Of a stretch of 64,000 bases of DNA, positions 16,318 to 29,748 are shown piece by piece. How positions within the stretch are numbered: position 1 is the first letter of the stretch; every line of letters starts with the position of its first letter. The translations under genes and the position numbers were made by a program. Source of the stretch: Promicromonospora sukumoe (lineage in GTDB: Bacteria > Actinomycetota > Actinomycetes > Actinomycetales > Cellulomonadaceae). Location: assembly GCF_014137995.1 (NCBI RefSeq), contig NZ_JACGWV010000001.1, positions 3,224,001-3,288,000 of the forward strand, in the 5' to 3' direction. The notes below the pieces were generated by a model that saw only the letters and a program-made list of their open reading frames with translations, made no database searches and was not told the DNA's origin.

Positions 16318-17424
16318 CTAGCCGGCCAGGTCCGCCGGCCGCACCTCAGCACCGGTCGCGGCGGCCTGCTGGATCGCGCACAGCAGCAGGACGGTCTCGA
16401 CCGCGTCGTCGACGCCGACCGGCACCGGCCCGGACGTCTCCAGCGCGTCGACGATCCCCGTCCACTGGGCCAGGTGTCCCGCGTGCCCGATCGCGAGCGG
16501 TTCGGCGGCGCCGCTCGTGATGCCGCCCGCCCCCGGCGCCGACACCCCCGGCACGTCCCAGCGGCGCACCTCCCCTTGTCCGAGCTCGACCGAGCCCCGC
16601 GACCCGAACAGCCCGATCGTCGCGGGGAACCCGGGCGGCGTCGCCGTCGTCGTCGTGACCACACCGAGCGCACCCGAGGCGAACCGCAGGGTCGCCACGG
16701 TGGTGTCCTCGGCCTCGATCTGGTGCGCGAGCGTGCCGGACTGCGCCGTCACCGACTCGACCGGGCCGCACAGCCAGCGCAGCAGGTCCACGTTGTGCAC
16801 GCCCTGGTTCATCAGGGACCCGCCGCCCTGCGCCGTCGTCGACCGCCAGCCGGCCGAGCGGTAGTAGGCGTCGTCACGGTGCCAGTGCACGTGCGTCATG
16901 GCGAGCCGCAGCTCGCCCAGCGCGCCGTCGTCGAGCGCCCGCTTGAGCGCGACGTGCTCGGCCTCCAGGCGGCGCTGGGAGATCATCGAGACCGTCAGCC
17001 CGCGCTCGTGCGCGGCCCGGGCGATCCGCAGCGCGTCGCCGGCGTCGAGCGCGAGCGGCTTCTCGACGACGACGTGCCGCCCCGCCTCCAGCGCCGCCAG
17101 CGCGAGCGCCGCGTGCGTGCCGCTCGGCGTGCAGATCGCCACGACGTCGACGTCGGGGTGGGCGATCACCTCGTGCGCGGCGAGGCGCGCCGCCGGCAGG
17201 TCCCTCTTGCCAGGACCCGCCGGCGGGCGCGCCCGGCCGCTGTACGCGACGAGCCGCGCCCGGCCGCTCAGCTCGGCGAGCGCCCGGGCGTGCATCGCAC
17301 CGATGCCGCCCATCCCGACGATCCCGACGCCGAGGGGAGCACCACCCGACGTGTCAGACCTCCAGGTCCCCCTGGTGACCTGTGGGTCTGACACGTCGGG
17401 GAGGGCGTCGTCACTCCGGGGCAT
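16318..17424 (-). CDS. Gfo/Idh/MocA-family sugar oxidoreductase
   Basis: A 368-residue NAD(P)-dependent dehydrogenase. The Rossmann motif VGIVGMGGIGAMHARAL begins at about residue 33; VVAICTPSGTHA and the catalytic HVVVEKPLALD follow, and the C-terminal domain has GGGSLMNQGVHNVDLLRWL. Family members oxidise or reduce sugars and cyclitols, including C3 oxidation to keto sugars. Its ATG overlaps the ABC ATPase stop by 14 bp, so it is the last gene of the transporter operon. The first 30 or so codons read through a 56-bp palindrome (17345-17400), so its N-terminus is unusual; no in-frame start lies between the palindrome and the Rossmann fold. Confidence 0.85.
   Translation of the reverse strand: MPRSDDALPDVSDPQVTRGTWRSDTSGGAPLGVGIVGMGGIGAMHARALAELSGRARLVAYSGRARPPAGPGKRDLPAARLAAHEVIAHPDVDVVAICTPSGTHAALALAALEAGRHVVVEKPLALDAGDALRIARAAHERGLTVSMISQRRLEAEHVALKRALDDGALGELRLAMTHVHWHRDDAYYRSAGWRSTTAQGGGSLMNQGVHNVDLLRWLCGPVESVTAQSGTLAHQIEAEDTTVATLRFASGALGVVTTTTATPPGFPATIGLFGSRGSVELGQGEVRRWDVPGVSAPGAGGITSGAAEPLAIGHAGHLAQWTGIVDALETSGPVPVGVDDAVETVLLLCAIQQAAATGAEVRPADLAG
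17345..17400. repeat. 56-bp near-perfect palindrome inside the oxidoreductase 5' end
   Basis: CCCGACGTGTCAGACC (17345-17360) and its exact complement (17385-17400) flank a second dyad, CAGGTC (17363-17368) with GACCTG (17377-17382), around an eight-base loop. The structure sits just past the ATPase stop codon. It looks like an extragenic palindromic element or attenuating hairpin captured in the start of the next gene. Confidence 0.75.
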
Positions 17425-18241
17425 GGCTCGCGCCCAGGAGGTCGCGCAGCCGCTCGGCCGCCGCCGTGAACCGCGGGTCGGCGAGCGTGGGCCCGTACTC
17501 GCGGCGCTCCGGGAGCCCCGGTTCGAGGGTCTCCACGATCCGGCCGGGCCGCGGGCTCATGACGACGATGCGGCTGCCCAGGTACACCGCCTCCGGCACG
17601 GAGTGGGTCACCAGCACCACGGTGGTGCCGGTCTCGCGCCAGATCCGGTTCATCTCGATGTTCATCTGCTCGCGAGTCAGCGCGTCGAGCGCGCCGAACG
17701 GCTCGTCCATGAGCAGCACCCGGGGCTCGTGCAGCAGGGCGCGGCACAGCGCGACGCGCTGCTGCATGCCGCCGGACAGCTCGTGCGGCAGGGCCTTCTC
17801 GAACCCGGTCAGGCCGGTGAGCTCGATGAGGTCGTCCGCCCGCTCCTCCGCCCGACGCCGGTCCATGCCGCGCATCTCGGCCTGCAGCAGGATGTTCTTG
17901 CGCACGCCCCGCCACTCCAGCAGGGCCGAGCGCTGGAACGCGAAGCCGATCTCGCGCTGCGGCCCGGTGACGGGCTTCCCGTACAGGCGCACGTCGCCGT
18001 CCGTCGCCAGGGTCAGACCCGCGATGATCTTGAGCAGCGTCGACTTGCCGCAGCCCGACGGCCCCGCGATCGTGACGAACTCGCCGGGCTGAACGGCCAG
18101 CGAGACGTCGTCGAGCGCGACGGTCTCCGAGCGCTTGGACGTGAAGCGCCGCGTGAGGTGCGAGACCTCGATGATCGGGTCGGTCCCCACGCTCCGCGCA
18201 GGGCTCCCGTGGCTGGCAATGGGCCCGGTCGTGGCGGTCAC
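17411..18241 (-). CDS. ABC transporter ATPase (SsuB/TauB/ThiZ-like)
   Basis: A 276-residue ATPase with Walker A GPSGCGKST, Q loop FAFQRSALLEWRGV, signature LSGGMQQRVALCRAL, Walker B VLLMDEPFGALD and the switch histidine in VLVTHSVPEA. These match the nitrate/sulfonate/taurine/HMP subfamily. The GTG start at 18241 overlaps the end of the binding-protein gene (ATGTGA) behind a GGGGAGGA ribosome site, so the longer frame is rejected. It energises the permease at 19362. Confidence 0.92.
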   Translation of the reverse strand: MTATTGPIASHGSPARSVGTDPIIEVSHLTRRFTSKRSETVALDDVSLAVQPGEFVTIAGPSGCGKSTLLKIIAGLTLATDGDVRLYGKPVTGPQREIGFAFQRSALLEWRGVRKNILLQAEMRGMDRRRAEERADDLIELTGLTGFEKALPHELSGGMQQRVALCRALLHEPRVLLMDEPFGALDALTREQMNIEMNRIWRETGTTVVLVTHSVPEAVYLGSRIVVMSPRPGRIVETLEPGLPERREYGPTLADPRFTAAAERLRDLLGASHAPE

Positions 18242-19296
18242 ATGTCCTCCCCGAAGGTCCCGTCCCAGTAGGCGTCCGGCGTCGGCTCGCCCTCGAACTC
18301 GGTGTTCTCGGTGAGGAACGTCAGGGTGTCGGTCCACTGCTGCTCGGTGTTGACGCCGGGCGCGGGCGCCTCCTCCAGGTTGAGCAGCCCGATCGTCGCC
18401 TCGAGCTGGGCCGCGAGCACGCTCTCCTCGGGCGCCTGCTCGGCGTTCTCCGCCATCGCCGCGACCGCGGCCTCCTGGTCCTCCGACGCCGCGAGGAACG
18501 ACTTCGACGTCGCCCGCACCATCGCCTGCACCAGCTCGGGGTCGCCCTCGATCGTCGCCTCGTGCGCCAGCAGGCCGGTGCCGAGCATGTTCATGCCGAA
18601 GTCGGAGAACGGCAGGGCCGAGACCTCCTTGCCCGTCTGGTTCTCGATCGTCGGCGCCTGGTCGTGGTGGAAGCCCTGGATGGCGTCGACCTTGCCCTCG
18701 ATCAGCGCGGCGATCTTGCCCGCGGCGTCGACGTTGACCACGGTCACGTCCGCCGGGTCCACGCCGTTGATCTCCAGCCACGCCGGGAAGGTGCCGTACA
18801 TGGCGTCGCCCGGCGTGCCGCCCACCGTCTTGCCCACGAGGTCGGCGGGCTCGGTGATGCCCTGGTCCTCGAAGAACTCGACCGAGCTGGGGCCGGTCTG
18901 CAGGAAGACGCCGACGCTGCGCACCGGCATGCCGGAGCTGATGCCGTTCGCCAGCGGCGGGGTGTCCGCCCAGCCGAAGTCGGTGTTGCGCTGCGCGACC
19001 TGCTGCACCGTGTTGCCGGACCCGTTGCCCGGCTGGATCGTCAGGTCGATCCCCTCGTCCTCGAAGATCCCCTGCTCGACGCCGTAGTAGAACGGCGCGT
19101 GCTCGCCGTACGGCACCCAGTTCAGGGTCACCGTGACCTCGGTCAGGCCCTCGGCGTTCTGCCCGCCCGACCCGGCGGCGCCGGTCTGCCCGCAGGCCGC
19201 GACGGTCGCCAGGGCGACGCCGCCCACGGCCAGCGACTGAACGATCTTGCGGCCGCTCGTCCTGCCGCCACGCTTCTGCTTCGTTGCACCACGCAT
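18238..19296 (-). CDS. NMT1/SsuA-like ABC substrate-binding lipoprotein
   Basis: A 352-residue lipoprotein: an N-terminal basic/hydrophobic signal with lipobox LATVAACG, then an NMT1/THI5-like type 2 periplasmic-binding fold. LNWVPYGEHAPFYYGVEQGIF, FGWADTPPLANGI, VGGTPGDAMY and VDAIQGFHHDQAPTIEN are typical of ThiY, SsuA and RibY relatives. The ligand cannot be assigned: HMP, sulfonates, riboflavin precursors and aromatic acids are all bound by this family. No TPP or FMN riboswitch is visible upstream; instead the operon has a LacI-type operator. It is the second gene of the operon. Confidence 0.88.
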   Translation of the reverse strand: MRGATKQKRGGRTSGRKIVQSLAVGGVALATVAACGQTGAAGSGGQNAEGLTEVTVTLNWVPYGEHAPFYYGVEQGIFEDEGIDLTIQPGNGSGNTVQQVAQRNTDFGWADTPPLANGISSGMPVRSVGVFLQTGPSSVEFFEDQGITEPADLVGKTVGGTPGDAMYGTFPAWLEINGVDPADVTVVNVDAAGKIAALIEGKVDAIQGFHHDQAPTIENQTGKEVSALPFSDFGMNMLGTGLLAHEATIEGDPELVQAMVRATSKSFLAASEDQEAAVAAMAENAEQAPEESVLAAQLEATIGLLNLEEAPAPGVNTEQQWTDTLTFLTENTEFEGEPTPDAYWDGTFGEDM

Positions 19297-19361
19297 GGGA
19301 GAGCCTTTCTGGTCGTGCCGCCCCGGGGACGGCGGAGAACGCGGAAGAGTGCGGGCCTGGA

Positions 19362-20240
19362 TCAGACGGTCGCGAGCGCGAGGTTGCCGCGCCGCGAGGC
19401 GTGCCACGGGATGAGGAGGCGTTCGAGCACCTCGACCAGCACGAAGAGGACCACGCCGATGAGCGACATGAGGATGAGGTCGGCGAACAGGAGTGGTGCG
19501 TCGAGGTTGCCGCTGGCGAGCAGCAGCACGTACCCGAGGCCGCGGTCGGCGCCCACGAACTCGCCGACGACGGCGCCCACCACCGCCAGCGTGACCGCGA
19601 CCTTGAGGCCGGACATGAGCTGCGGGAGGGCCCCGGGGAACCGGATCTTGCGGAAGGTCTTCCACCGCGACGCGCCCATCGTCGCGGACATCTCCAGCAG
19701 CTCGGGGTCGACCGAGCGCAGCCCCGCCACGGCCGAGACGACGACCGGGAAGAACGCGATGAGCACGGCCAGGACGATCTTCGGCGTCATGCCGAACCCG
19801 AACCAGACCACGAGGATCGGCGCGATGGCGATCTTCGGGATGACCTGGGCGAACAGGATGAGCGGGTAGAGCGACTTCTCCGCCGTCCGGGAGTAGACCA
19901 GCAGCACCGCCGTCGCCACGCCGATCACGGCCGCGAGCACGAACCCGAGGATCGTCTCCAGCGTCGTGACCCACGTGTGCTCCAGGAGCATGGGCCACTC
20001 GGCGATCATCGTCTCCGCGACCGCGCCGGGCGCGGGCACGAGGTAGGCGGGGACCAGCTCGCGCCAGGCCACGAACCACCACACGCCGAACAGCGCGAGC
20101 AGCACGGCCACCGGCCGCCAGGACTCGGCCAGCAGCGTCAGTGCCCGGGTCCCGAGCGGCGTCCCGCCGTCGGCCTGCGCCGCCGGCCGGGGCCTGCGCG
20201 AGGGCGGCGTCGTGGGGCGGGCCTCCTGGGTGGTCACCAT
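19362..20240 (-). CDS. ABC transporter permease (SsuC/ThiX-like)
   Basis: A 292-residue permease with about six membrane helices. The ATPase-coupling EAA region reads MSATMGASRWKTFRKIRFPGALP, and GAVVGEFVGADRGLGYVLLLA is typical of the nitrate/sulfonate permease family. ATG 20240 is preferred because GGAGG lies eight bases upstream; an in-frame ATG at 20255 has only a weak site. It is the first gene of the operon permease, binding protein, ATPase, Gfo/Idh/MocA oxidoreductase. The promoter around 20401-20446 is covered by a LacI-type operator. Confidence 0.9.
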   Translation of the reverse strand: MVTTQEARPTTPPSRRPRPAAQADGGTPLGTRALTLLAESWRPVAVLLALFGVWWFVAWRELVPAYLVPAPGAVAETMIAEWPMLLEHTWVTTLETILGFVLAAVIGVATAVLLVYSRTAEKSLYPLILFAQVIPKIAIAPILVVWFGFGMTPKIVLAVLIAFFPVVVSAVAGLRSVDPELLEMSATMGASRWKTFRKIRFPGALPQLMSGLKVAVTLAVVGAVVGEFVGADRGLGYVLLLASGNLDAPLLFADLILMSLIGVVLFVLVEVLERLLIPWHASRRGNLALATV

Positions 20241-20400
20241 GGCGTGATCCTCCATAGTTCGCTCTTTCCGTTTCGTCGCACGGGGTCGACGTCGACACCC
20301 GTGGGGCAGCGGGTCAGGGCACACCGGACTGCGATGTCAGGGGCGTGCCGGTCGGTAGAGCAGGTCAGCGGCTCCGCCTGTGGAGCTGCTTGCCGGGGAC

Positions 20401-20446
20401 ACTATGAGGCGCGTGGGGGGCCGACAACGAGTTGCCACTTGTTGCC
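20401..20446 (-). promoter_or_regulatory. LacI-type operator and promoter of the ABC operon
   Basis: The operator core CAACGAGTTGCCACTTGTTG (20425-20444) is a quasi-palindrome with 16 of 20 matching positions. Reading leftward, GTTGTC (20428-20423) and CATAGT (20406-20401) are plausible -35 and -10 boxes spaced 16 bp, so bound repressor would cover the -35. A 24-bp segment (20423-20446) is repeated exactly, in reverse orientation, at 22073-22096. The 160 bp between the -10 box and the permease ATG form a leader with no recognised element. Confidence 0.75.
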
Positions 20447-20458
20447 ACCGGGCCAGGG

Positions 20459-20752
20459 TCAGCCGTCACCCGGGCGGGTGACGGGTTCCAGGTCGACGGC
20501 GACCGACCGGAAGCCCGCGGACCGCACGGCCCGCAGCACCTCACCGCGCAGCGGCTCCGCCGTCATGCTCGCGAGGTCGCGGTGCGGCGCCTCGAGGCGC
20601 GCCAGGTCGCCGTGGTGCCGCACCCGGATCTCCTCCAGGCCGAGGCGCCGCAGCTCGCTCTCCGCGGCCTCGATCTGCACGGCGTCGTCCGCCACCGCCT
20701 CCTCCCTCACGTGGTCGTCGGGCACCGCGAGCGGGTCGGTAGGCAGGGTCAT
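20459..20752 (-). CDS. Stand-alone LarE C-terminal domain (fragment or micro-gene)
   Basis: A 97-residue reading frame whose second half (SELRRLGLEEIRVRHHGDLARLE, then VLRAVRSAGFRSVAVDLEP) closely resembles the C-terminal domain of LarE, the sacrificial sulfur transferase of nickel-pincer cofactor synthesis. Full LarE proteins are about 270 residues with a PP-loop SGGVDSS motif and the sulfur-donating cysteine; both are absent here. It may be a relic of larE or an independent small protein. Its ATG (20752) has no strong ribosome site. It lies between the ABC operon and the lacI gene, within the operator-rich segment. Confidence 0.5.
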   Translation of the reverse strand: MTLPTDPLAVPDDHVREEAVADDAVQIEAAESELRRLGLEEIRVRHHGDLARLEAPHRDLASMTAEPLRGEVLRAVRSAGFRSVAVDLEPVTRPGDG

Positions 20753-20785
20753 GCCTGTCATTCGAGGGCGCCGCACCAGGGCCGT

Positions 20786-20807
20786 CAAGGAGTTGCCACC
20801 TCTTGCC
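20786..20807. promoter_or_regulatory. Weaker copy of the LacI-type operator
   Basis: These 22 bp match the strong operator at 20425-20446 at 19 positions (CAAGGAGTTGCCACCTCTTG then CC). A small dyad CTTGCC-N5-GGCAAG overlaps its right end (20802-20818). It lies about 85-105 bp upstream of the lacI start and before the LarE-like frame, so it could serve either. Confidence 0.5.
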
Positions 20808-20842
20808 GGGCAGGCAAGAACCTGCCGCCACGGGCCGGACCA

Positions 20843-20882
20843 CGGCAAATGGTTGCCGTCGGCCGGTCGCGCGCCGTACGCT
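20843..20882 (+). promoter_or_regulatory. lacI promoter with overlapping palindrome, leaderless start
   Basis: The perfect dyad CGGCAA-ATGG-TTGCCG (20843-20858) supplies the putative -35 (TTGCCG, 20853-20858). TACGCT (20877-20882) follows after 18 bp and lies eight bases before the ATG at 20891, suggesting a leaderless transcript. A palindrome over the -35 box predicts autorepression. Confidence 0.6.
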
Positions 20883-20890
20883 CCCCGCGC

Positions 20891-21931
20891 ATGGGCGAAA
20901 CTGGCGAAACCGGGAGCTCTAGCAACAGACCGACCATCTACGACGTCGCCAGGGCTGCCGGCGTCGCACCCTCGACCGTCTCACGCGCGTTCTCCCGTCC
21001 GGGGCGCGTGAACGCCGACACCGCGGACCGCATCCGGCGCGTCGCGCACGAGCTCGGGTACCGCACCAGCCCCATCGGGCGCGGCCTGCCCGACGGCCGG
21101 ACCGCGCTGCTCGCGATCATCGTGGCCGACCTGACCAACCCGTTCTTCTTCGAGATCATCCGCAGCGCCGAGAAGACCGCCATCGACTCCGGGTACACGC
21201 TCCTGGTGGTGGACGCGCACGAGTCGAGCGGGGCCGAGCGCCGGGCCCTGGAGCGCACGCTGCCCCTGGTGGAGGGGGTCGTCCTCGCGACCTCGCGGCT
21301 GTCGGACGCCGCGATCCGGGCCGTCGCCAAGCAGCGGCCGACCGTCGTCATGAACCGCGTGGTCGCGGACGTGCCGAGCGTGGTGACGGACAACGCCCAG
21401 GGCATGCGGCGCGCCGTCGAGCACCTGGCGGGACTGGGCCACTCCCGGCTGACGTACCTGGCCGGGCCCGAGGCGTCCTGGGCCGACGGCATGCGCTGGC
21501 GCGCCTTCCGCGAGGCGACCCAGGAGCTCGGCCTGCGGGCGCGCCGGCTCGGCCCGTTCGCGCCGACCCTCGCCGGCGGGCTCTCGGCCGCCCAGGCCCT
21601 GACCACCCACACCGCCACCGCGACCGTCGCCTACAACGACCTCGTCGCGATCGGCACGATGCGCGGGCTGACCCGGCTGGGGGTCGAGGTGCCCCGCGAC
21701 CTGAGCGTCGTCGGGTTCGACAACATCTTCGGCTCCGACTTCTGCACCCCTCCGCTGACGACGGTCGCCTCTCCCCTGCGCCACTTCGGCACGTTCGCCG
21801 TCCAGCGCCTGCTGAACCAGCTCCGGGCGCCGTCGGCCGGGCTGTCGGCCGCGGCGTCGTCCGGCCTGTCGGCCCCGGCGCTGCTCCCGGCCAAGCTCGT
21901 CGAACGCGGCTCGACCGCCCGCCACGGCTGA
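20891..21931 (+). CDS. LacI-family transcriptional regulator
   Basis: A 346-residue repressor. The HTH is TIYDVARAAGVAPSTVSRAF (about residues 15-34) followed by the hinge helix, then a periplasmic-binding-like ligand domain with IIVADLTNPFFFEIIRSAE, VVMNRVVADVPSVVTDNAQG and LSVVGFDNIFGSDFCTPPLTTV. The effector is probably a sugar or related small molecule. Operators matching one motif occur in its own promoter region, before the ABC operon and before the secreted-enzyme operon, so it is the likely common regulator. ATG 20891 is fixed by the TACGCT box and the start of the HTH. Confidence 0.92.
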   Translation: MGETGETGSSSNRPTIYDVARAAGVAPSTVSRAFSRPGRVNADTADRIRRVAHELGYRTSPIGRGLPDGRTALLAIIVADLTNPFFFEIIRSAEKTAIDSGYTLLVVDAHESSGAERRALERTLPLVEGVVLATSRLSDAAIRAVAKQRPTVVMNRVVADVPSVVTDNAQGMRRAVEHLAGLGHSRLTYLAGPEASWADGMRWRAFREATQELGLRARRLGPFAPTLAGGLSAAQALTTHTATATVAYNDLVAIGTMRGLTRLGVEVPRDLSVVGFDNIFGSDFCTPPLTTVASPLRHFGTFAVQRLLNQLRAPSAGLSAAASSGLSAPALLPAKLVERGSTARHG

Positions 21932-21936
21932 CCCCG

Positions 21937-22025
21937 GCAGTTGGACGCTCGTTCACCAGGCAGTCCGCGGCCGCGTCTCGGCCCGTCACGGTCCCGGACC
22001 GCCTGGTGAACGCTCGTCCAACTGC
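21937..22025. repeat. 25-bp inverted repeat downstream of lacI
   Basis: The arm at 21937-21961 pairs with 22001-22025 at 23 of 25 positions around a 39-bp spacer; the outer ends read GCAGTTGGACGCTCGTTCACC and its near complement. It begins six bases after the lacI stop, so it probably terminates lacI and insulates the next promoter. Each arm is itself weakly dyadic around ACGCTCGT, so a protein-binding role is an alternative. Confidence 0.6.
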
Positions 22026-22072
22026 TCGGCGCAGACCAGCGACCGGCGCGGCGGTGCGCGCGCCCTGGGAGG

Positions 22073-22120
22073 GGCAACAAGTGGCAACTCGTTGTCCGGG
22101 GTCAGCGCTCACCGCATAGT
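22073..22120 (+). promoter_or_regulatory. LacI-type operator and promoter of the secreted-enzyme operon
   Basis: Bases 22073-22096 are the exact reverse complement of 20423-20446. TTGTCC (22092-22097) and CATAGT (22115-22120), spaced 17 bp, make a convincing promoter whose -35 is buried in the operator. Transcription would begin near 22127, leaving an 84-base leader before the ATG at 22211. Confidence 0.8.
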
Positions 22121-22210
22121 GACGTGGCGTACCCAGCCGTCGGCGCAACGACGCCGCCCCCGGCGGGCACGGTCCCCGCTAGGCAGGTCCTCGATGGAGA
22201 GGCAAGGCCC

Positions 22211-25200
22211 ATGGAACGCAGATCGACCCACCGCACCCTCGCCGCGATGCTCGGCGTGCTCGTGCTGCCGTTCACGGTGCTCCCGGCAGCCGCGCAGGCC
22301 TCGGCCCAGTCAGCCGTGCAAGCCGCGGCCGACCCCACCCGGCCGCAGGAGCCCGGCGTGACCCTGCGCGTCTTCGACGTCCAGGTCCCGCTGGAGGACT
22401 ACTGCACGCTCAAGCCGGGCCAGACGCCGAACATCGACAAGCTGATGCCGACGATCGACTACCGCACGGCCGCGGACTTCGGCCTCACGGACCGGTTCGT
22501 CACCGAGGTGACCGGCTACCTGAACGTGCCCGACGCCGGCACGTACGACTTCCGGGTCACGAGCGACGACGGCGCCCGCCTGCTGCTGGACGACACCGTC
22601 GTGGTGGACCACCCGGGCAAGCACGGGGCCACCCCGAAGGACGGGTCGGTCGCGCTGGAGGCCGGGTACCACGCCCTGCGCATCGACCACTTCGACGGCG
22701 ACTTCGGCCAGCAGCTCACGCTGGAGTGGCGCCCGCCGGGCGCGACCGGCTTCGCGCTGGTGCCGAACTCGGTGCTGAGCACCGACGCCGAGGTCACCCG
22801 CGTCACCTCGCCGGGCCGCAAGCTCTGCGAGGGCGTCGACGAGGCGCCGGGCGACGGCCTGCCGCTGACCGAGGTGCACCCCGACTACACGCTGACGAAC
22901 CTGCGTCCGGACGGCTTCGAGCCGCAGGTCACGGGCATGGACTGGCTGCCGGACGGCCGCATGGCCATCGCCACGTGGGGCGGCGACCGCGAGACCGTGC
23001 TCGGCGAGGTGTACCTGGTCGAGAACGTGACGGGCGACGGCGGCGCCGACGACGTGACGTACACGAAGATCGCCGAGGAGCTCGAGGAGCCGATGGGCCT
23101 GAAGGTCGTCGACGACCGGATCTACGTCTCCGAGAAGCACGGGCTGACCGAGCTCGTGGACACCGACGGCGACGAGGTCACCGACGAGTACCGCGAGGTC
23201 GCGACCTGGCCGTTCGGCGGCAACTACCACGAGTTCGCGTTCGGCCTGCTGTACGAGGACGGCTACTTCTACGTCTCCACGGGCATCGCGATGGTGCCCG
23301 GCGGCGCGACCCGTGACCCGCAGCTCGTCGAGAACCGCGGCTCGGTGCTGAAGATCGACGAGGAGACCGGCGAGGTCGAGTACCTCGCGGGCGGCCTGCG
23401 CACCCCGAACGGCCTCGGCTTCGGGGCGGACGGCGGCATGTACGTCACCGACAACCAGGGCATGCACGTGCCGACGTCGAAGCTGGTCCGGGTCGAGGAG
23501 GGCGCATTCTACAACCACTACACGAACCCCGACGGCCCGTACGACGACCAGCCCGTCACCGAGCCCGTGCTGTGGATGCCGCACAGCGAGATCTCCAACT
23601 CGCCGAGCAACCCGGTGATCCTCACCGAGGGCGTGTTCGAGGGCCAGATGGCGATCGGCGACGTGACCTACGGCGGCCTGCAGCGCGTCTACCTGGAGGA
23701 CGTCGCCGGCCAGGAGCAGGGCGCCGTCTTCCGCATGACGCAGGGCCTGGAGTCCGGCGTCAGCAGGACGAGCGTGGGACCGGACGGCTCGATCTACGTG
23801 GGCGGCATCGGCTGGTCGGGCAACTGGGGCCAGGCGGGCAAGCTCGGCTACGGCCTGCAGAAGCTCACGTTCGACGAGAGCCGGGCGTTCGACATGCTCG
23901 AGATGCGCGCGGTCGAGGGCGGATTCGAGATCGAGTACACGATGCCGCTGTCGGCGGAGACCGCCGAGAACCTGGCCGAGAAGTACGAGGCGGCGCAGTG
24001 GCGCTACGTCTCCACGCCGCAGTACGGCGGGCCCAAGATCGACGAGGAGGACCTGGACGTCACCTCGGCGACGCTCTCGGCGGACCGTAGGACGGTGACC
24101 CTGGCGGTCGACGGGCTCAAGGCCGGCCGGGTGGTCAACGTGCACTCCCCGCGGCCGTTCGCGGCCGAGGGCGGCGAGGAGCTGTGGAGCACCGAGGCCT
24201 GGTACACGATGAACCGCCTGCCGGACGGCACCACCCCGCCGCCCGTCTACGAGGCCGAGGCCGCCGACATCTCCGGCGGGGCCGGCTGGAACACCAACCA
24301 CGCCGGGTACTCGGGCGCCGGGTTCGTGGACCGCAACTGGGAGCCGGGCGCCCGCACCACGTTCGCAGTCGAGGCCGGCGAGGCCGGGCCGCACGACCTG
24401 GCGCTGCGCTACGCCAACGGGCAGAACTCCGACCCGAGCCCGACGCCGCGGTCGATGAGCCTGTACGTCAACGGCGAGAAGCAGAAGCAGGTCTGGCTCG
24501 ACAGCACCGTGACCTGGGCCAACTGGCAGACGCAGACCGAGACGGTCGAGCTGCGCGAGGGCGCCAACACGATCGCCTACGTGCACGACGAGGACGACCT
24601 GGGGCACGTGAACCTGGACAGCCTCACCGTCACGCCCAGCGAGCGCATCGCCCTGTTCGACGGCGGCGACCTCGACGCCTGGGAGAAGGCGAGCGGCGGG
24701 GCCGCGACGTGGCCCGTCGCGGACGGCTCGGTGGAGTCCTTCGGCGGCGACATCCGCACCAAGGAGAAGTTCGGCGACTTCCGGATGCACGCCGAGTGGT
24801 TCCAGCCGGAGCACGCCGACGACGTGACCGGGCAGGCCCGCGGCAACAGCGGCGTCTACATCCAGGAGCGCTACGAGGTGCAGGTGCTGGAGTCCTTCGG
24901 CATCGACCCGCCGAAGAACAACGACGCCGGCTCGATCTACCTGAAGAAGGCCCCGGACCTCAACGCCGCGACCGAGATGGGCACGTGGCAGACGTACGAC
25001 ATCGAGTTCCGTGGCGCCCGGTTCGCCCCGGACGGCACCAAGACCGAGGACGCGCGGCTCTCGCTCTGGTGGAACGGGCAGCTCGTGCACGACGACGTCG
25101 CGATCGACGGCAAGACCGGCAACGGCAAGAACGAGGGGCCGACGCCGGGCCACATCAAGCTCCAGGACCACGGCGACGCCGGCCTGAACCCGCGGTTCCG

Positions 25201-25534
25201 CAACATCTGGATCGAGCGCCTGACCGGGGAGGAGACCTCGCAGGCCCTCGCGTCCAAGGTCTCGGCGAAGCTCGCCCCGCCGAAGGTGAAGGCGGGCCAG
25301 GACGTGCGGGCCGAGGTCAAGGTGCCCGGCGCCAAGGGGAAGCCGGCCCCGACGGGGACCGTCCGGGTCACGGTCGGCGACACGTCGGTCAGGGCCACGC
25401 TGGGCCGCGGTCCGGCGCGGGTCGTCGTCCCGACGTCGGGCCTGGCGAAGGGGGTGCACCCGGTGACGGTGCAGTACCTCGGCGACCTGACGTACGGGCG
25501 CAGCACGACGACGGTCGACCTCACCGTCCGCTGA
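22211..25534 (+). CDS. Secreted PA14 / sugar-dehydrogenase-like propeller / CBM / DUF1080 fusion
   Basis: A 1107-residue exported protein. Domains in order: signal peptide (1-about 38); PA14-like (about 92-175, GYLNVPDAGTYDFRVTSDDG then ARLLLDD); a six-bladed glucose/sorbosone-dehydrogenase-like propeller (about 213-555); a CBM6/35-like module (about 676-800, YEAEAADISGGAGWNTNHAG); a DUF1080 3-keto-disaccharide hydrolase domain (about 812-1003, ALFDGGDLDAWE, GNSGVYIQERYEVQVLESFG, GHIKLQDHG); and a C-terminal Ig-like domain (about 1020-1107). DUF1080 members cleave or eliminate across 3-keto-glycosides. GGAGAGG sits eight bases before ATG 22211. It is the first gene of a three-gene operon under a LacI operator. 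Confidence 0.87.
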   Translation: MERRSTHRTLAAMLGVLVLPFTVLPAAAQASAQSAVQAAADPTRPQEPGVTLRVFDVQVPLEDYCTLKPGQTPNIDKLMPTIDYRTAADFGLTDRFVTEVTGYLNVPDAGTYDFRVTSDDGARLLLDDTVVVDHPGKHGATPKDGSVALEAGYHALRIDHFDGDFGQQLTLEWRPPGATGFALVPNSVLSTDAEVTRVTSPGRKLCEGVDEAPGDGLPLTEVHPDYTLTNLRPDGFEPQVTGMDWLPDGRMAIATWGGDRETVLGEVYLVENVTGDGGADDVTYTKIAEELEEPMGLKVVDDRIYVSEKHGLTELVDTDGDEVTDEYREVATWPFGGNYHEFAFGLLYEDGYFYVSTGIAMVPGGATRDPQLVENRGSVLKIDEETGEVEYLAGGLRTPNGLGFGADGGMYVTDNQGMHVPTSKLVRVEEGAFYNHYTNPDGPYDDQPVTEPVLWMPHSEISNSPSNPVILTEGVFEGQMAIGDVTYGGLQRVYLEDVAGQEQGAVFRMTQGLESGVSRTSVGPDGSIYVGGIGWSGNWGQAGKLGYGLQKLTFDESRAFDMLEMRAVEGGFEIEYTMPLSAETAENLAEKYEAAQWRYVSTPQYGGPKIDEEDLDVTSATLSADRRTVTLAVDGLKAGRVVNVHSPRPFAAEGGEELWSTEAWYTMNRLPDGTTPPPVYEAEAADISGGAGWNTNHAGYSGAGFVDRNWEPGARTTFAVEAGEAGPHDLALRYANGQNSDPSPTPRSMSLYVNGEKQKQVWLDSTVTWANWQTQTETVELREGANTIAYVHDEDDLGHVNLDSLTVTPSERIALFDGGDLDAWEKASGGAATWPVADGSVESFGGDIRTKEKFGDFRMHAEWFQPEHADDVTGQARGNSGVYIQERYEVQVLESFGIDPPKNNDAGSIYLKKAPDLNAATEMGTWQTYDIEFRGARFAPDGTKTEDARLSLWWNGQLVHDDVAIDGKTGNGKNEGPTPGHIKLQDHGDAGLNPRFRNIWIERLTGEETSQALASKVSAKLAPPKVKAGQDVRAEVKVPGAKGKPAPTGTVRVTVGDTSVRATLGRGPARVVVPTSGLAKGVHPVTVQYLGDLTYGRSTTTVDLTVR

Positions 25535-25611
25535 CCTGACCCCTGACCCGGCCCCCGAAGCCCACCAGGCTCCCGCAGCTGATCTTGTCCCTCGAAGGAG
25601 AGGTTCGTCCG

Positions 25612-26838
25612 ATGGAACGCACCACCAGCACGCCCGCACACAGCCCCCACCGCACCCCAGCCCGCACCCCGAGGCGCGCCGCGAAGCCGTGGCTCGCCGC
25701 CGCGGTGGTCGCCACGCTGTCCCTGCCGGTCCTGGCCGCTCCCGCGGGTGCGGCCGGGCCCGGCGGGGGCCACGGTCCCGGCCCGGGCGCCGGGACCACC
25801 GCGTGCGCGTACGGCTACACCAGCGACGCCACGGTCTGGTTCGGCGCCGGCGCCGACTCCGGCGTGACCAACCACGAGACCCGGGCCGGCTGCACCGTGA
25901 TGGACGAGATCATGGCGGGGGCCCCGTTCAGGACGCACGGCCAGTTCGTCCGGACGGTCACCTCGGTGACCAAGGACCTGGTGCGCGAGCGGGTCCTCAC
26001 CGGCGGCGAGCGCCGCGACATCCTGCGCGCGGCGGCCGCCTCGAAGGTGGGCAAGCCCCACCCGGTGACCGGCAAGCGGGCGGTCGACCTGTCGGCGATC
26101 GGCCTGGTGGGCTACACGGTCCGCGCGACCATGCCGACCGACGCCGAGGGGACGCTCGCGGCGCTGGCCGGGTGCGGCTTCCAGAACATCGAGCCGTCGG
26201 GCAGCGCGGGCAACTTCTACGGCTACACGGCCGCGGAGCTGGCGCCGCTGACGGACGAGGCAGGGATCGAGGTGCCGTCGCTGGGCGTGAGCCTGTCGAA
26301 CCTGCAGAACGACGTCGACCTGGTGGCGGCCGAGGCGCACGCGATCGGCGCGAAGTACGTGCGCATCTCGGGCTCCGGCTCGTGGACGCTCGCGGACTAC
26401 TCCCGGACGGCCGCGATCCTCAACGAGGCGGGTGAGGCGCTGAGTGCCGAGGGCATCCGGGTCGCGTACCACAACCACGGGTACGAGTTCGAGACCGAGG
26501 AGGACGGCGTCGCGGGCTACGACGTGCTGGTCCGGGAGACCAACCCGGCCTTTGTCACGATGGAGCTCGACGTGTACTGGGCGGCTAGCACGGAGACCGC
26601 CGCCACGGACCTGTTCGCGCGCTACCCGGGCCGGTTCGAGCTGCTGCACCTCAAGGACATCGCCGAGGACGGCTCCTTCGCCGACGTCGGCGCGGGGACC
26701 ATCGACTTCGCCGAGATCTTCGCCGCCGCGCCGCTCGCCGGGGTCCGGTACGGCTTCACGGAGAACGACCAGCCGTCGCCCGACGGCGTGACGTCCGCGT
26801 GCACCAGCCTCGGCTACCTCGCCGAGCTGCGCTACTGA
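25612..26838 (+). CDS. Secreted sugar isomerase/epimerase-like TIM barrel
   Basis: A 408-residue protein with a signal peptide (hydrophobic stretch about 26-46, ending in APAGAAG), an N-terminal extension of about 100 residues with two cysteines, and a xylose-isomerase-like TIM barrel. Barrel landmarks are VRISGSGSWTLADYS, VAYHNHGYEFE, FVTMELDVYWA, FELLHLKDI and GAGTIDF, which supply the usual metal ligands (His, Glu, Asp, His). Most family members are cytosolic; an exported one fits extracellular or cell-surface work on keto sugars beside the DUF1080 protein. AAGGAGAGG precedes ATG 25612. A 77-bp gap separates it from the first gene. Confidence 0.85.
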   Translation: MERTTSTPAHSPHRTPARTPRRAAKPWLAAAVVATLSLPVLAAPAGAAGPGGGHGPGPGAGTTACAYGYTSDATVWFGAGADSGVTNHETRAGCTVMDEIMAGAPFRTHGQFVRTVTSVTKDLVRERVLTGGERRDILRAAAASKVGKPHPVTGKRAVDLSAIGLVGYTVRATMPTDAEGTLAALAGCGFQNIEPSGSAGNFYGYTAAELAPLTDEAGIEVPSLGVSLSNLQNDVDLVAAEAHAIGAKYVRISGSGSWTLADYSRTAAILNEAGEALSAEGIRVAYHNHGYEFETEEDGVAGYDVLVRETNPAFVTMELDVYWAASTETAATDLFARYPGRFELLHLKDIAEDGSFADVGAGTIDFAEIFAAAPLAGVRYGFTENDQPSPDGVTSACTSLGYLAELRY

Positions 26839-26852
26839 GAGGGAGAGTGCCG

Positions 26853-29615
26853 ATGTCCGCACCGCACAGCCGGGCACGCCGACGGCTCCTGGGTGCGACG
26901 ACCGGTCTGGTCGTCGCGCTCGGGGCCCTGGTCCCCGCCACCACAGCCGCCACCGCCCATCCGGGCTCGGACCACGGCGGGTCCGATCACGCCGAGACGA
27001 CCGAGTTCGACAAGGTCCCGCTGGTCACGGAGGGTCTCGCCGACCCGTTCGAGCTGGACGTGGCCGACGACGGCCGCGTCGTCTACATCCAGCGCACCGG
27101 CCAGGTGGTGGTGCTGGACCAGGAGACGCTGCGCCAGACCACGGCCCTGGACCTGGACTACTCCCTGGACCTGCTCCAGCAGTCCGACGGCCTGCTGGGC
27201 CTGACCCTGGACGACGACTTCACCGAGAACGGGTGGCTGTACCTGCTCTGGAGCGACCCCGACGTCGCCAAGATGAACCTCTCGCGGTTCACGATGGGGC
27301 CGGACGACACGATCGACCCGACGTCGGAGAAGCGCCTGCTCGACTTCACCATCTGGCGCGGCGAGGGCCGCGCGAACTCGCACATGGCCGGCTCGCTCGC
27401 CATGGGCCCGGACGGCGACCTGTATGTCGCGACCGGTGACAACTCCGACCCGTTCGACCAGGCGGGCTACACCCCGATCGACGAGCGGGAGGGCCGCCGA
27501 GGCTGGGACGCGCAGGGCACGTCCGCCAACACGAACGACCTGCGCGGCAAGGTGCTGCGCATCACCCCGGAGGACGACGGCACGTACTCGGTCCCGGACG
27601 GCAACCTGTTCGCGCCCGGCACCGAGGACACCCGCCCGGAGATCTACGGCATGGGCTTCCGCAACCCGTTCCGGATCACCGTGGACCCCGGCACCGGCGC
27701 GGTGCTCATCGGGGACTACGGGCCCGACGCCCGCGTGGCCGACCCGCTGCGCGGCCCGGAGGGCCAGGTCGAGTTCATCCGGATGACGGAGCCGGGCAAC
27801 CACGGCTGGCCGTACTGCCACGCCGACAACCAGCCGTACATCGACTACGACTTCGCCACCGGAGCGTCCGGCGAGGCGTTCGACTGCGCCAACCCGGTCA
27901 ACGACTCCCCCAACAACACGGGCCTGCGCGAGCTCCCGCCGTCGCAGGAGCCGCTGGTCTGGTACGGCTACGGGGAGTCGGCGGAGTTCCCCGAGCTCGG
28001 TACCGGCGGCGCGGCGCCCATGGGCGGCCCGGTCTACCGGTTCGACCCGGACCTCGACGTCAAGACGAAGTTCCCGGAGACCTTCGACGGGCACTGGTTC
28101 GTCTCCGAGTACGCCCGCAACTACTACAAGGTGCTCTCGCTCGACGAGACCACGGGCGAGCTCGCCTCGATCGACCCGTTCCTGGAGGGCGAGACGTTCG
28201 TCGCCCCGTTCGAGGCCGAGTTCGGCCCCGACGGCTCGCTCTACATCATCGACTTCGGCCTCGGCCGGGGTGCGGGCCGCGGCAGCACCAACACCGACGC
28301 CGGCATCTACCGCATCGACTACGCGGCCGACGGCCGCCGGCCGATCTCGCAGTTCAGCGCCGACGTCGACTCCGGCCACGAACCGCTGACCGTCGCCTTC
28401 GACGGCGGCGCCAGCGAGAGCCCCGACGGGCTCGACATCACCTACGAGTGGGACTTCGAGAACGACGGCGTCGTCGACTCCACCGAGGCCAACCCGACGC
28501 ACACGTACACCGAGCGGGGCCAGTTCGGCGCCCGCCTGACGGTCACGGACAGCGAGGGGTTCACCGGCGTCTCCGTGCAGAAGATCACGGTCGGCAACAC
28601 CCGGCCGGACGTCGCCTTCGGGGCGCCGTTCCACGGCGGCTTCGCCGAGCTCGGCGACACCGTCGACTACTCGGTGGACGTGGACGACGTCGAGGACGGC
28701 TCCACCGAGGCGGGCACCATCGACTGCGAGCAGGTCACGGTGAACACCCAGCTCGGCCACGACACCCACGCGCACCCCCTGGACAACTACACCGGGTGCT
28801 CCGGGTCGGTGTTCCTCGACCCGGCGGACCACGGCGTGGGCCAGAACGTCTACCCCGTGCTCGGGGCGGGCTACCAGGACCTCGGCGCCGACGGCGTGCC
28901 CGCGCTGGCCGGCCAGGACGTCATCCACCTGCAGGTACGGGACAAGGAGGCCGAGTTCTACGCGGACAGCTCCGGCGTCACCGTGGCGGACGGCGCGGAC
29001 GCCCGCGGCGGACGCCTGGTGACCGACGTCGACCACGGCGACTGGATCGCGTTCGGCCCGGTGGACCTGCGCGGCATCGACGGCCTGACGGTCGGCGCCG
29101 TCCGCGGCGCCGCCGACACGACCGTCGAGGTCCGGGCCGGCAGCCCGACCGGGCGCAAGCTCGGCCAGGTCGAGGTACCCAAGGCCACGGGTGCCGGGCA
29201 GGTCGTCTCGCCCAGCCTCGACCTCAAGGCGCGGCAGGGTGCCACCACCCTGTACCTCGTCGCGAAGAGCAAGCGCGAGCCGGCCGACGGCGCGAACGTC
29301 GGCCTCGACTGGCTCGTCTTCCACGGGCGCGGCGTCGCCGACGCCACCGCCCCGGTCGTGACGGCCGAGGCCGGCCGCGGGGCCGTCCGGGCAGGCAGCC
29401 CGGTCGACCTGTCCGGGTCCGCCGTGGCCCCCGAAGGGCGCGAGATCGTCTCCTACCAGTGGGACCTCGGTGACGGGACCACCGCGGACGGCGCGAGCGT
29501 CGCGCACGCCTACGAGCAGCCGGGCCGGTACACGGCACGACTCATCGCGACCGACAGCGAGGGCACTCGCGACTGGACGACGGTCGAGCTGAGGGTGTCG
29601 CCCGCCAAGCCCTGA
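26853..29615 (+). CDS. Secreted sugar dehydrogenase-like (GSDH) propeller with PKD domains
   Basis: A 920-residue exported protein: signal peptide (1-about 37); a glucose/sorbosone dehydrogenase propeller (about 50-480) with GLLGLTLDDDFTENGWLYL, LAMGPDGDLYVATGDNSD, YGMGFRNPFRI and GNHGWPYCH; a PKD domain (about 493-585); a region of unknown fold with paired cysteines (about 590-700); a CBM6-like module (about 710-825); and a final PKD domain (about 830-915). The propeller class uses PQQ in known enzymes and oxidises aldoses, but PQQ ligands cannot be confirmed by eye. It starts 14 bp after the TIM-barrel stop, with GGGAGAG upstream, so it is co-transcribed. Confidence 0.85.
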   Translation: MSAPHSRARRRLLGATTGLVVALGALVPATTAATAHPGSDHGGSDHAETTEFDKVPLVTEGLADPFELDVADDGRVVYIQRTGQVVVLDQETLRQTTALDLDYSLDLLQQSDGLLGLTLDDDFTENGWLYLLWSDPDVAKMNLSRFTMGPDDTIDPTSEKRLLDFTIWRGEGRANSHMAGSLAMGPDGDLYVATGDNSDPFDQAGYTPIDEREGRRGWDAQGTSANTNDLRGKVLRITPEDDGTYSVPDGNLFAPGTEDTRPEIYGMGFRNPFRITVDPGTGAVLIGDYGPDARVADPLRGPEGQVEFIRMTEPGNHGWPYCHADNQPYIDYDFATGASGEAFDCANPVNDSPNNTGLRELPPSQEPLVWYGYGESAEFPELGTGGAAPMGGPVYRFDPDLDVKTKFPETFDGHWFVSEYARNYYKVLSLDETTGELASIDPFLEGETFVAPFEAEFGPDGSLYIIDFGLGRGAGRGSTNTDAGIYRIDYAADGRRPISQFSADVDSGHEPLTVAFDGGASESPDGLDITYEWDFENDGVVDSTEANPTHTYTERGQFGARLTVTDSEGFTGVSVQKITVGNTRPDVAFGAPFHGGFAELGDTVDYSVDVDDVEDGSTEAGTIDCEQVTVNTQLGHDTHAHPLDNYTGCSGSVFLDPADHGVGQNVYPVLGAGYQDLGADGVPALAGQDVIHLQVRDKEAEFYADSSGVTVADGADARGGRLVTDVDHGDWIAFGPVDLRGIDGLTVGAVRGAADTTVEVRAGSPTGRKLGQVEVPKATGAGQVVSPSLDLKARQGATTLYLVAKSKREPADGANVGLDWLVFHGRGVADATAPVVTAEAGRGAVRAGSPVDLSGSAVAPEGREIVSYQWDLGDGTTADGASVAHAYEQPGRYTARLIATDSEGTRDWTTVELRVSPAKP

Positions 29616-29634
29616 AGCCCCTGACCCCGCCGAC

Positions 29635-29676
29635 AGCGCCGGCCCGGACCACCCCGCGGTGGTCCGGGCCGGCGCT
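29635..29676 (+). terminator. Very strong terminator of the secreted-enzyme operon
   Basis: AGCGCCGGCCCGGACCACC (29635-29653) pairs perfectly with 29658-29676 around the tetraloop CCGC. This 19-bp stem lies 20 bp past the stop codon and is followed by ACTTCTC. It closes the three-gene operon and separates it from the AraC gene. Confidence 0.9.
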
Positions 29677-29748
29677 ACTTCTCACAGTCTTGGAATTGCC
29701 GGCGTCGCGACGATTGCCGCCGGTCGGAGCCCGGCAGAGACTGGATCG

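What the first reader, a model, noticed from the sequence alone, without database searches (positions are those of the whole stretch)
16318..29676. One LacI regulon joining an uptake operon to a secreted keto-sugar enzyme set
An exact 24-bp operator occurs in opposite orientation in the promoters of the ABC/Gfo-Idh-MocA operon (20423-20446) and of the three-gene secreted operon (22073-22096), with weaker copies near lacI. The secreted set has a propeller sugar dehydrogenase, a DUF1080 domain (3-keto-glycoside hydrolase/lyase family) and an exported sugar isomerase-like TIM barrel; the cytoplasmic set has an oxidoreductase and an NMT1-type importer. Known 3-keto glycoside routes use the same families, but usually inside the cell or periplasm. 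This looks like an extracellular oxidation-cleavage-uptake route.
Basis: partly seen in the sequence, partly recalled or inferred. Interest (0 to 1): 0.82.

Follow-up and report, generated by a model that had tools for sequence, protein, structure and literature searches.

The report
Glucuronide-linked keto-sugar regulon, partly secreted
A soil actinobacterium appears to use one repressor to switch on both exported enzymes of the type that cut sugar bonds after oxidation and a transporter with an intracellular partner enzyme, and related genomes suggest that the target is glucuronic-acid sugars.

Summary
Two exact copies of a 24-bp operator sit in opposite orientation in the importer and secreted-operon promoters, with no other copy in the 6.5-Mb genome within 3 mismatches. 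The pair flanks the same lacI in Promicromonospora, Cellulosimicrobium and Oerskovia. In two genomes where the TIM-barrel and propeller genes lie elsewhere in the chromosome, the operator still heads them. One regulon is well supported; binding is untested.

The 'isomerase-like' barrel keeps all five metal/catalytic residues named for the 3-keto-glycoside beta-eliminase AtOGE and looks exported. The oxidation step is the weak link: the propeller has the sugar-dehydrogenase fold, but its PQQ anchors look lost and no PqqE passed the cut-off.

New here is the likely substrate. Orthologous LacIs sit beside beta-glucuronidase, glucuronide transporter and glucuronate isomerase genes. The Cellulosimicrobium/Oerskovia loci examined place uxaC after the DUF1080 gene and uxuB (uxuA where the contig reaches) beyond the importer end. 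I propose a glucuronide route with exported steps, a new variant of a known kind. No reaction was shown.

The parts
16318..17424 (-). Gfo/Idh/MocA oxidoreductase, no signal peptide seen by eye, last gene of importer operon
   Evidence: Pfam PF01408/PF22725/PF02894; nearest PDB chains 3q2k/3q2i nearly full length, E 2e-50 / 6e-46; 34% identity to 3q2k
17411..18241 (-). ABC ATPase of Tau/Ssu/NMT1 class
   Evidence: PF00005; overlaps the oxidoreductase gene by 14 bp and the SBP gene by 4 bp
18238..19296 (-). NMT1/THI5-type solute-binding lipoprotein (lipobox by eye)
   Evidence: PF09084 E 1.8e-42; nearest PDB 4nmy and 3ix1 (formyl-aminopyrimidine binder), E 2e-18
19362..20240 (-). ABC permease, first gene of importer operon
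   Evidence: PF00528
20423..20446 (-). operator OP1, 183 bp upstream of the permease start
   Evidence: exact 24-mer
20459..20752 (-). 97-aa ORF equal to the C-terminal part of LarE; remnant of a larE gene
   Evidence: TIGR00268 profile positions 188-253 of 259, 42 bits, under the 150-bit cut-off
20784..20797 (-). lacI-proximal dyad GGCAACTCCTTGAC (probable autoregulation site)
   Evidence: same type in 18 of 18 distinct assemblies with lacI and its upstream region
20844..20857 (.). lacI-proximal palindrome GGCAAATGGTTGCC
20891..21931 (+). LacI-family repressor
   Evidence: PF00356, PF13377 over cut-off; orthologs of 61% identity or more in seven genus labels
22073..22096 (+). operator OP2, ending 115 bp upstream of the DUF1080 gene start
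   Evidence: exact 24-mer
22211..25534 (+). secreted (signal by eye) PA14 - DUF7133 propeller - CBM35 - DUF1080 (3-keto-disaccharide hydrolase) - Ig protein, 1107 aa
   Evidence: Pfam; DUF1080 E 4.8e-40; nearest PDB 4qhz
25612..26838 (+). secreted (signal by eye) AP_endonuc_2 TIM barrel, OGE-type beta-eliminase homologue, 408 aa
   Evidence: PF01261; PDB 8tcs/8tcd/8tct/8bvk; H287, H289, E318, D320, H346, E384 invariant in the 12 sequences aligned
26853..29615 (+). secreted GSDH propeller - PKD - CBM6 - PKD protein, Tat-like signal by eye, 920 aa

Best explanation
One LacI repressor, derived from a glucuronide-responsive lineage, holds down two promoters through a 24-bp operator placed just upstream of a CATAGT-like block. 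A glucuronide breakdown product releases it (inferred). The cell then exports three proteins: one with a DUF1080 3-keto-glycoside-cleaving domain, one OGE-type Mn-dependent barrel that would break 3-keto-glycosides by beta-elimination (or hydrate the glycal product), and a sugar-dehydrogenase-fold propeller; the first and third also carry carbohydrate-binding modules. The freed product enters through the NMT1-type ABC importer, and the cytoplasmic Gfo/Idh enzyme oxidises or reduces C3. The resulting glucuronate feeds UxaC, then UxuB and UxuA. Shown here: regulon architecture, conservation, domain content, active-site residues, and genomic coupling to glucuronate genes in relatives. Inferred: DNA binding, inducer, substrate, all reactions, and who performs the extracellular C3 oxidation.
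For: Operator. In one search the TC-centred site occurs in 10 of 13 sampled Promicromonospora genomes and 12 of 17 genomes of the Cellulosimicrobium group. Relocation: TIM-GSDH lie about 1.8 Mb (G049) and 2.2 Mb (G098) from lacI yet keep the operator; all 5 TIM genes found among 24 probed genomes sit in an operator-headed unit. The operator tracks the DUF1080 ortholog, 21/3/1/125, p 2e-21, counted by hand (genomes not independent; 8 genomes whose match has another centre were counted as without). Chemistry; fusions. Glucuronide link: LacI orthologs (61-70%) beside beta-glucuronidase and glucuronide symporter genes in 4 loci; beta-glucuronidase over cut-off in L155 and L157, the transporter in L155, glucuronate isomerase in L155 and L192. 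L192 (taken as Motilibacter) has LacI, LarE, LarA-like, UxaC, UxuB, the TIM-GSDH fusion, Gfo, importer and a second TIM within 19 kb. UxaC lies after DUF1080 in 8 of 8 Cellulosimicrobium/Oerskovia assemblies examined whose stretch reaches that far, and UxuB beyond Gfo in 10 of 10. UxuA is over cut-off in L062. The nearest PDB relatives of Gfo by sequence, 3q2k/3q2i, are recalled to be WlbA, a C3 dehydrogenase of a uronic-acid sugar nucleotide.
Against: In the window's own genome uxaC lies on another contig (C3:404848) with no operator near it, so the coupling is seen in relatives only. A second, 39-42% LacI sits in the Cellulosimicrobium/Oerskovia loci, often between Gfo and uxuB or between DUF1080 and uxaC, and may control the uxu genes instead. 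L192 has no site within 5 mismatches of the 24-mer, so the regulon itself is not shown there. In the Micromonospora- and Streptomyces-like loci the importer, TIM and propeller occur without DUF1080 or this operator and with no clear Gfo, so the core module may serve another substrate there. PQQ anchors are not conserved in the propeller alignment. The CBM35 is nearest to CBM35s of glucan enzymes (GH31, CITase), not to a uronate binder. No close beta-glucuronidase was found in the own genome, but two GH2-type matches of 32% exist, so hydrolysis is not excluded there.
Confidence: 0.55

Rival explanations
1. One reading: the same regulon, but for neutral glycosides (3-keto-glucosides), oxidised outside the cell by the propeller, cleaved by DUF1080 and imported.
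For: In the papers seen, DUF1080 and AP_endonuc_2 enzymes act or are proposed to act on 3-keto-glucosides, 3-keto-trehalose or 3-keto-lactose. The CBM35 resembles glucan-enzyme CBM35s. The propeller has the sugar-dehydrogenase fold.
Against: LacI orthology, the LarE remnant and the UxaC/UxuB/UxuA coupling point to glucuronate. No PqqE over cut-off and the PQQ anchors do not align.
Confidence: 0.2
2. The propellers are substrate-binding scaffolds, not dehydrogenases. C3 oxidation is done in the cytoplasm by Gfo, or by other organisms, and the exported barrel and DUF1080 protein only cleave 3-keto-glycosides found outside.
Against: The positions of sGDH His144 and Arg228 are invariant in 9 of 9 sequences. 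The Tat-like export signal and many other invariant polar residues suggest an active site.
Confidence: 0.15
3. The importer brings in an aglycone or a pyrimidine-like cofactor precursor rather than a sugar product, and shares the regulon for that reason.
For: The binding protein's nearest PDB relatives include a formyl-aminopyrimidine binder and THI5.
Against: The importer lies beside the TIM, mostly with a propeller, in 14 of 20 stretches from other families, with no thiamine gene noticed by eye in the stretches listed; the NMT1 class is broad and no equivalog passed its cut-off among the rows shown.
Confidence: 0.1

Closest known systems
Oxidation-elimination-hydration-reduction glycoside pathway (A. 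tumefaciens GlycDH/AtOGE, PMC10628242; and the gut-metagenome system to which I recall PDB entries 8tcd/8tcs/8tct/8tdi belong)
   Same: Gfo/Idh oxidoreductase plus AP_endonuc_2 barrel with the same five AtOGE residues
   Different: The barrel looks exported from a Gram-positive cell; DUF1080 and propeller proteins are co-exported; NMT1-type importer; LacI of the glucuronide lineage
Periplasmic LacABC-DUF1080 lactose route of Caulobacter (PMC9007349, passages)
   Same: Exported DUF1080 protein tied to a sugar C3-oxidation function
   Different: Propeller and OGE-type barrel here; operator-defined regulon. LacABC-type genes were not searched for in this genome
Levoglucosan pathway LgdA-B1-B2-C (PMC10066097, passages)
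   Same: Gfo/Idh plus PF01261 barrels plus ABC importer
   Different: No secreted set is described in the passages seen; Gfo is far below the levoglucosan dehydrogenase cut-off (87 of 650 bits)
uid/uxu glucuronide loci with GH2 beta-glucuronidase (L155, L156, L157, L070)
   Same: Orthologous LacI, similar operator core, coupling to UxaC/UxuB/UxuA in relatives
   Different: No GH2 beta-glucuronidase or symporter in the window or the Promicromonospora/Cellulosimicrobium loci; elsewhere in the own genome only GH2 matches of 32%

Membership tests
LacI/GalR repressor | LacI HTH and periplasmic-binding-protein-like effector domain | tested here: met
   PF00356 50 bits, PF13377 98 bits, both over cut-off
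LacI/GalR repressor | binds its operators | not testable with these tools
   only conservation and co-occurrence
DUF1080 / 3-keto-disaccharide hydrolase (PF06439) | domain over curated cut-off | tested here: met
   138 bits against 26.8
DUF1080 / 3-keto-disaccharide hydrolase (PF06439) | cleaves 3-keto-glycosides | not testable with these tools
   no assay
OGE-type Mn beta-eliminase | PF01261 barrel with AtOGE His132, His134, Asp163, His189, Glu233 | tested here: met
   aligned to H287, H289, D320, H346, E384; invariant in the 12 sequences aligned, window included, chosen from 142. That 8bvk is AtOGE is inferred from length and residue numbers
OGE-type Mn beta-eliminase | beta-elimination activity | not testable with these tools
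   a related barrel is a probable hydratase, so lyase or hydratase is open
PQQ sugar dehydrogenase (GSDH) | six-bladed GSDH propeller fold | tested here: met
PQQ sugar dehydrogenase (GSDH) | catalytic His and Arg (sGDH H144, R228, residue roles recalled) | tested here: met
   H133 and R226 of A1 invariant in 9 of 9 and aligned to 1c9u
PQQ sugar dehydrogenase (GSDH) | PQQ-anchoring K377, R406, R408 (recalled) | tested here: inconclusive
   align to A/T, A/S, F/L; weak alignment of the C-terminal blades
PQQ sugar dehydrogenase (GSDH) | PQQ synthesis in the organism | tested here: inconclusive
   PqqE: 0 matches over cut-off; PqqC: no match. None of the 14 control genomes was over cut-off in either, so absence is not proven; PQQ could also be scavenged
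NMT1/THI5 HMP-type importer | SBP family | tested here: met
   PF09084 over cut-off
NMT1/THI5 HMP-type importer | an NCBIfam equivalog assignment over cut-off | tested here: not met
   none over cut-off for SBP and permease, nor among the best 25 of 188 rows shown for the ATPase
Glucuronide (uid/uxu) regulon | regulator orthologous to LacI beside GH2/UxaC | tested here: met
   61-70% identity, near-identical HTH helix, pocket motifs shared and absent from the 42% paralogs
Glucuronide (uid/uxu) regulon | hexuronate genes under the operator in the window genome | tested here: not met
   uxaC on C3, no operator there; coupling seen only in relatives

The most novel reading that the evidence does not exclude
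A Gram-positive cell supplements or replaces hydrolytic beta-glucuronidase by an exported redox-elimination system: glucuronides are C3-oxidised by secreted propellers without classical PQQ anchoring, cleaved by a secreted OGE-type lyase and DUF1080, and the 3-keto-uronate is imported by an NMT1-class transporter and reduced inside. All of it would be run by a LacI taken over from a beta-glucuronidase / nickel-pincer (Lar) locus whose LarE fossil still lies between the promoters.
Probability: 0.3. Interest if true: 0.78.

Novelty: new variant of a known kind. Interest (0 to 1): 0.62.

Why it matters
In the papers seen, the non-hydrolytic 3-keto route for breaking glycosidic bonds works inside cells or in the Gram-negative periplasm. 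A coordinated exported version in actinobacteria, tied by regulation and synteny to glucuronate catabolism, would give a testable substrate class for a large set of unassigned secreted proteins (6,873 relatives of the GSDH domain among 7,991 scored candidates; many ThuA-GSDH fusions and secreted 'sugar phosphate isomerases' among the rows listed), and would raise the question of how C3 oxidation is powered outside a Gram-positive cell.

Tried and rejected
Inositol pathway: Gfo's top NCBIfam match is inositol 2-dehydrogenase but at 142 of 355 bits, and the barrel matches IolE at only 39 of 290; rejected because the barrel's nearest solved relatives are the 3-keto-glycoside enzymes. Levoglucosan route: below cut-off. 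Thiamine uptake as sole role of the importer: kept as a weak rival. Global operator: rejected, two sites in the genome; the relaxed 15-mer with up to 2 mismatches gives 15 places against 9 for the control, so at that looseness extra sites are mostly chance. Sigma-70 promoters and terminators: none found in 20230-22230, so the promoter reading of TTGTC...CATAGT is by eye. The flanks of OP1 are not a clean control: much of the leader downstream of OP1 is conserved too among Promicromonospora. G005:C81 operator-like site (L223): no member of the set nearby, taken as chance or unrelated. UxuA search: 6 of 22 loci given had it; in L061, L063, L079, L080, L085, L086 and L225 the stretch ends at UxuB, in L072 before it; none in L054, L056, L070, L155, L157, L192, L222, L224. 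PQQ genes: PqqE and PqqC searches gave nothing over cut-off, but no control genome did either. Literature: 10 searches; none listed a paper that I recognised, from title and start of abstract, as being on an extracellular 3-keto route for glucuronides or on this LacI (one search showed 12 of 1,930, 10 of 130), and the library lacks most subscription papers; the gut-metagenome pathway paper itself was recalled, not read. Papers seen: PMC10628242 outline with abstract and sections 7, 8, 14; PMC9007349, PMC10066097 and PMC10622841 passages only; the rest as search listings.
Full report
OBSERVATION. The operator claim holds exactly. The 24-mer is present at 20423-20446 (minus) and 22073-22096 (plus), with no further copy within 3 mismatches in the window or in the 6,512,079-base assembly. 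A dyad pattern GGCAANNNNTTGYC finds the same two places and the palindrome at 20844-20857. OP1 lies 183 bp upstream of the permease start and OP2 ends 115 bp upstream of the DUF1080 gene start. In an alignment of the secreted-operon promoters of seven Promicromonospora genomes (window included) the operator is identical while much of the intergenic sequence is not; a CATAGT-like block follows, 18 bp downstream at OP2 and 16 bp at OP1 in the window, kept in most but not all. At OP1 the leader downstream is also well conserved, so there the operator does not stand out. The block is where a -10 element could sit, which suggests repression by promoter occlusion (inferred; the consensus scan found no sigma-70 promoter).

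MORE THAN CHANCE. In one search, 37 of 200 genomes of the family matched the degenerate pattern with at most 1 mismatch, and the reversed control gave 0 in all 200. Reading the table by hand, 24 of the 37 have the window's TC centre or a near variant: 10 of 13 Promicromonospora genomes (own included), 12 of 17 genomes of group g7, the single g11 genome, and G005; the other 13 have other centres. Eight of the 13 Promicromonospora genomes have the exact 24-mer twice on one contig, in opposite orientation; the seven others of these eight were fetched and show lacI between the sites. Of the genomes without the operator, G048, G087, G117, G106, G129, G141 and G032 were searched for LacI: six have no match at E<=1e-80 and G087 has only 45-50% paralogs. 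Among the 150 genomes I counted 21 with both the DUF1080 ortholog (78% or more over the best stretch) and the TC-type operator, 3 with the operator only (G111, G149, G005), 1 with the ortholog only (G124, whose operators have 2 mismatches) and 125 with neither: Fisher p 2e-21. Caveats: the genomes are related, and 8 of the 125 match the degenerate pattern with another centre. Genomes that have only a DUF1080 paralog of 46-56% show no TC-type operator.

NATURAL EXPERIMENTS. In G049 and G098 the TIM and propeller genes lie about 1.8 and 2.2 Mb from the lacI-side operator pair and are headed by the operator with one mismatch. In G123 one operator (2 mismatches) heads a unit TIM - TIM2 - permease - SBP - ATPase - Gfo - propeller - DUF1080 paralog, so the two operons of the window are one there. 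In G111 the DUF1080 gene is missing at this place and the operator heads TIM-propeller. Of 24 genomes probed, 5 have this TIM gene at E<=1e-60 and all 5 are in operator-headed units. This is strong evidence for one regulon; protein-DNA binding was not tested.

THE SECRETED SET. Signal peptides were judged by eye. The TIM barrel (25612-26838) has as nearest solved relatives 8tcs, 8tcd, 8tct and 8bvk. 8bvk is taken to be AtOGE from its length and the residue numbers in PMC10628242 (section 8 read). The AtOGE residues His132, His134, Asp163, His189 and Glu233 align to H287, H289, D320, H346 and E384, and these with E318 are invariant in the 12 sequences aligned, the other 11 being 31-80% identical to the window protein. 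So this is an exported OGE-type enzyme, lyase or hydratase; the A. tumefaciens operon has an eliminase and a probable hydratase, both annotated as sugar phosphate isomerases. The DUF1080 domain scores 138 bits against a cut-off of 26.8. Fusions tie the modules together: TIM with GSDH (P0139, P0143, and L192), ThuA with GSDH and DUF1080 (P0208), DUF1080 with TIM (P0114).

THE CYTOPLASMIC SET. The importer is of the NMT1/Tau/Ssu class; its binding protein is nearest to 4nmy and to a formyl-aminopyrimidine binder, so its ligand is open. Gfo matches 3q2k and 3q2i nearly over its full length (E 2e-50 and 6e-46, 34% identity to 3q2k). I recall these as WlbA. A passage in PMC10622841 says that the corresponding step (WbpB there) is C3 oxidation of a UDP-uronic acid, and its reference list names WlbA papers for the same sugar. 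8tdi, named glucuronide-3-dehydrogenase, matches more weakly.

SUBSTRATE. LacI orthologs of 61-70% identity occur in other genera. In L155, L156, L070 and L157 they lie beside genes matching beta-glucuronidase and the glucuronide symporter. Of the proteins scanned against NCBIfam, beta-glucuronidase was over cut-off in L155 and L157, the transporter and LarC in L155, glucuronate isomerase and LarE in L155 and L192, and glucuronate isomerase and LarE in L222. Their recognition helix and effector-pocket motifs match the window LacI and differ from the 42% paralogs. L192, taken as Motilibacter aurantiacus because its contig length equals that of P0139, holds the LacI, LarE, a LarA-like protein, UxaC, UxuB, the TIM-GSDH fusion, Gfo, the importer and TIM2 in 19 kb, but no site within 5 mismatches of the 24-mer. 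In the Cellulosimicrobium and Oerskovia loci examined, UxaC lies after DUF1080 in 8 of 8 assemblies whose stretch reaches far enough: with no other gene of the query set between in 6, and with the 42% LacI between in 2 (L062, L081); L082 and L083 end too soon, and G065, G088, G098, G112, G118, G133 and G149 were not fetched at this locus. UxuB lies beyond Gfo in 10 of 10, often with the 39-42% LacI between. UxuA follows in the 6 loci whose stretch reaches it (L062, L071, L081, L082, L083, L226). UxaC of L225 and UxuA of L062 are over their curated cut-offs; UxuB is under its cut-off (295 of 603 bits), so 'fructuronate reductase' is the best name, not a certain one. The window carries a fossil of this origin: a 97-aa LarE C-terminus at 20459-20752. 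Against this, the window genome's own uxaC is elsewhere without an operator, and the own genome has no close beta-glucuronidase but two GH2-type matches of 32% and one weaker.

BREADTH. In the class sample 20 of 394 genomes have a TIM at E<=1e-30. I took 20 stretches, covering 20 of the 25 matches outside the own genome. The importer trio sits beside the TIM in 14 of the 20 (L192 included), and 13 of these 14 also have a propeller; in the two of them scanned besides L192, the propeller protein begins with ThuA (L185, L188). None of the 20 has a DUF1080 match or an operator within 5 mismatches; Gfo matches occur in L192 (67%) and L201 (29%) only. In the 66 of 80 named loci outside Promicromonospora, Cellulosimicrobium and Oerskovia the DUF1080 protein has no TIM, GSDH, SBP or permease match of the query set in the DNA held, up to 10 kb each side, and no operator. 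So importer plus exported TIM plus propeller looks like the old core; LacI, Gfo and DUF1080 are additions here.

VERDICT. New variant of a known kind.

Noticed in passing
window 20459-20752 (-): A 97-aa ORF equal to the C-terminal part of LarE, present at 60-85% identity in the Promicromonospora, Cellulosimicrobium and Oerskovia loci without the ATPase part; remnant or small functional protein.
   Followed up: partly
L070 12898-14301; L192 4964-6235; also L155, L158, L159: A LarA-like nickel-pincer enzyme (best NCBIfam match in L070 and L192 'putative hexonate epimerase', under cut-off) sits in the glucuronide loci L070, L155 and L192, hinting at a uronate or hexonate epimerase.
   Followed up: no
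L062 10502-11557; L069 7471-8454; L192 17631-18458: A second barrel without an obvious signal peptide (TIM2) lies in the importer operon of relatives and is missing from the window.
   Followed up: partly
L065 (own genome, contig C2): A paralogous cluster with DUF1080 (48%), GSDH (49%), Gfo (37%) and ABC genes but no such operator; similar in G117 (L161) and, without a GSDH match, G014 (L162).
   Followed up: no
L185-L191, L197-L199, L202-L204: Importer trio next to a TIM and (except L202) a propeller protein in other actinobacterial families; a 389-aa ORF without Pfam match lies between ATPase and TIM in L188.
   Followed up: partly
window 21940-22021: A long inverted repeat after lacI (GTTGGACGCTCGTTCACCAGGC and its near complement), also in L054, absent from the other relatives aligned; possibly a mobile repeat.
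   Followed up: no
window about 17350-17400: An inverted repeat (GTGTCAGACC ... GGTCTGACAC) inside the 5' end of the Gfo reading frame; relatives' similarity mostly starts after it, so the true start may be further in.
   Followed up: no
window 29659-30813 (+): AraC-family regulator after the secreted operon, best NCBIfam match AndR, under cut-off.
   Followed up: no
L224 (strain G123): A 67% LacI with a palindromic operator-like site beside UxaC, UxuB and a TRAP solute-binding protein: a separate hexuronate unit in a Promicromonospora.
   Followed up: partly
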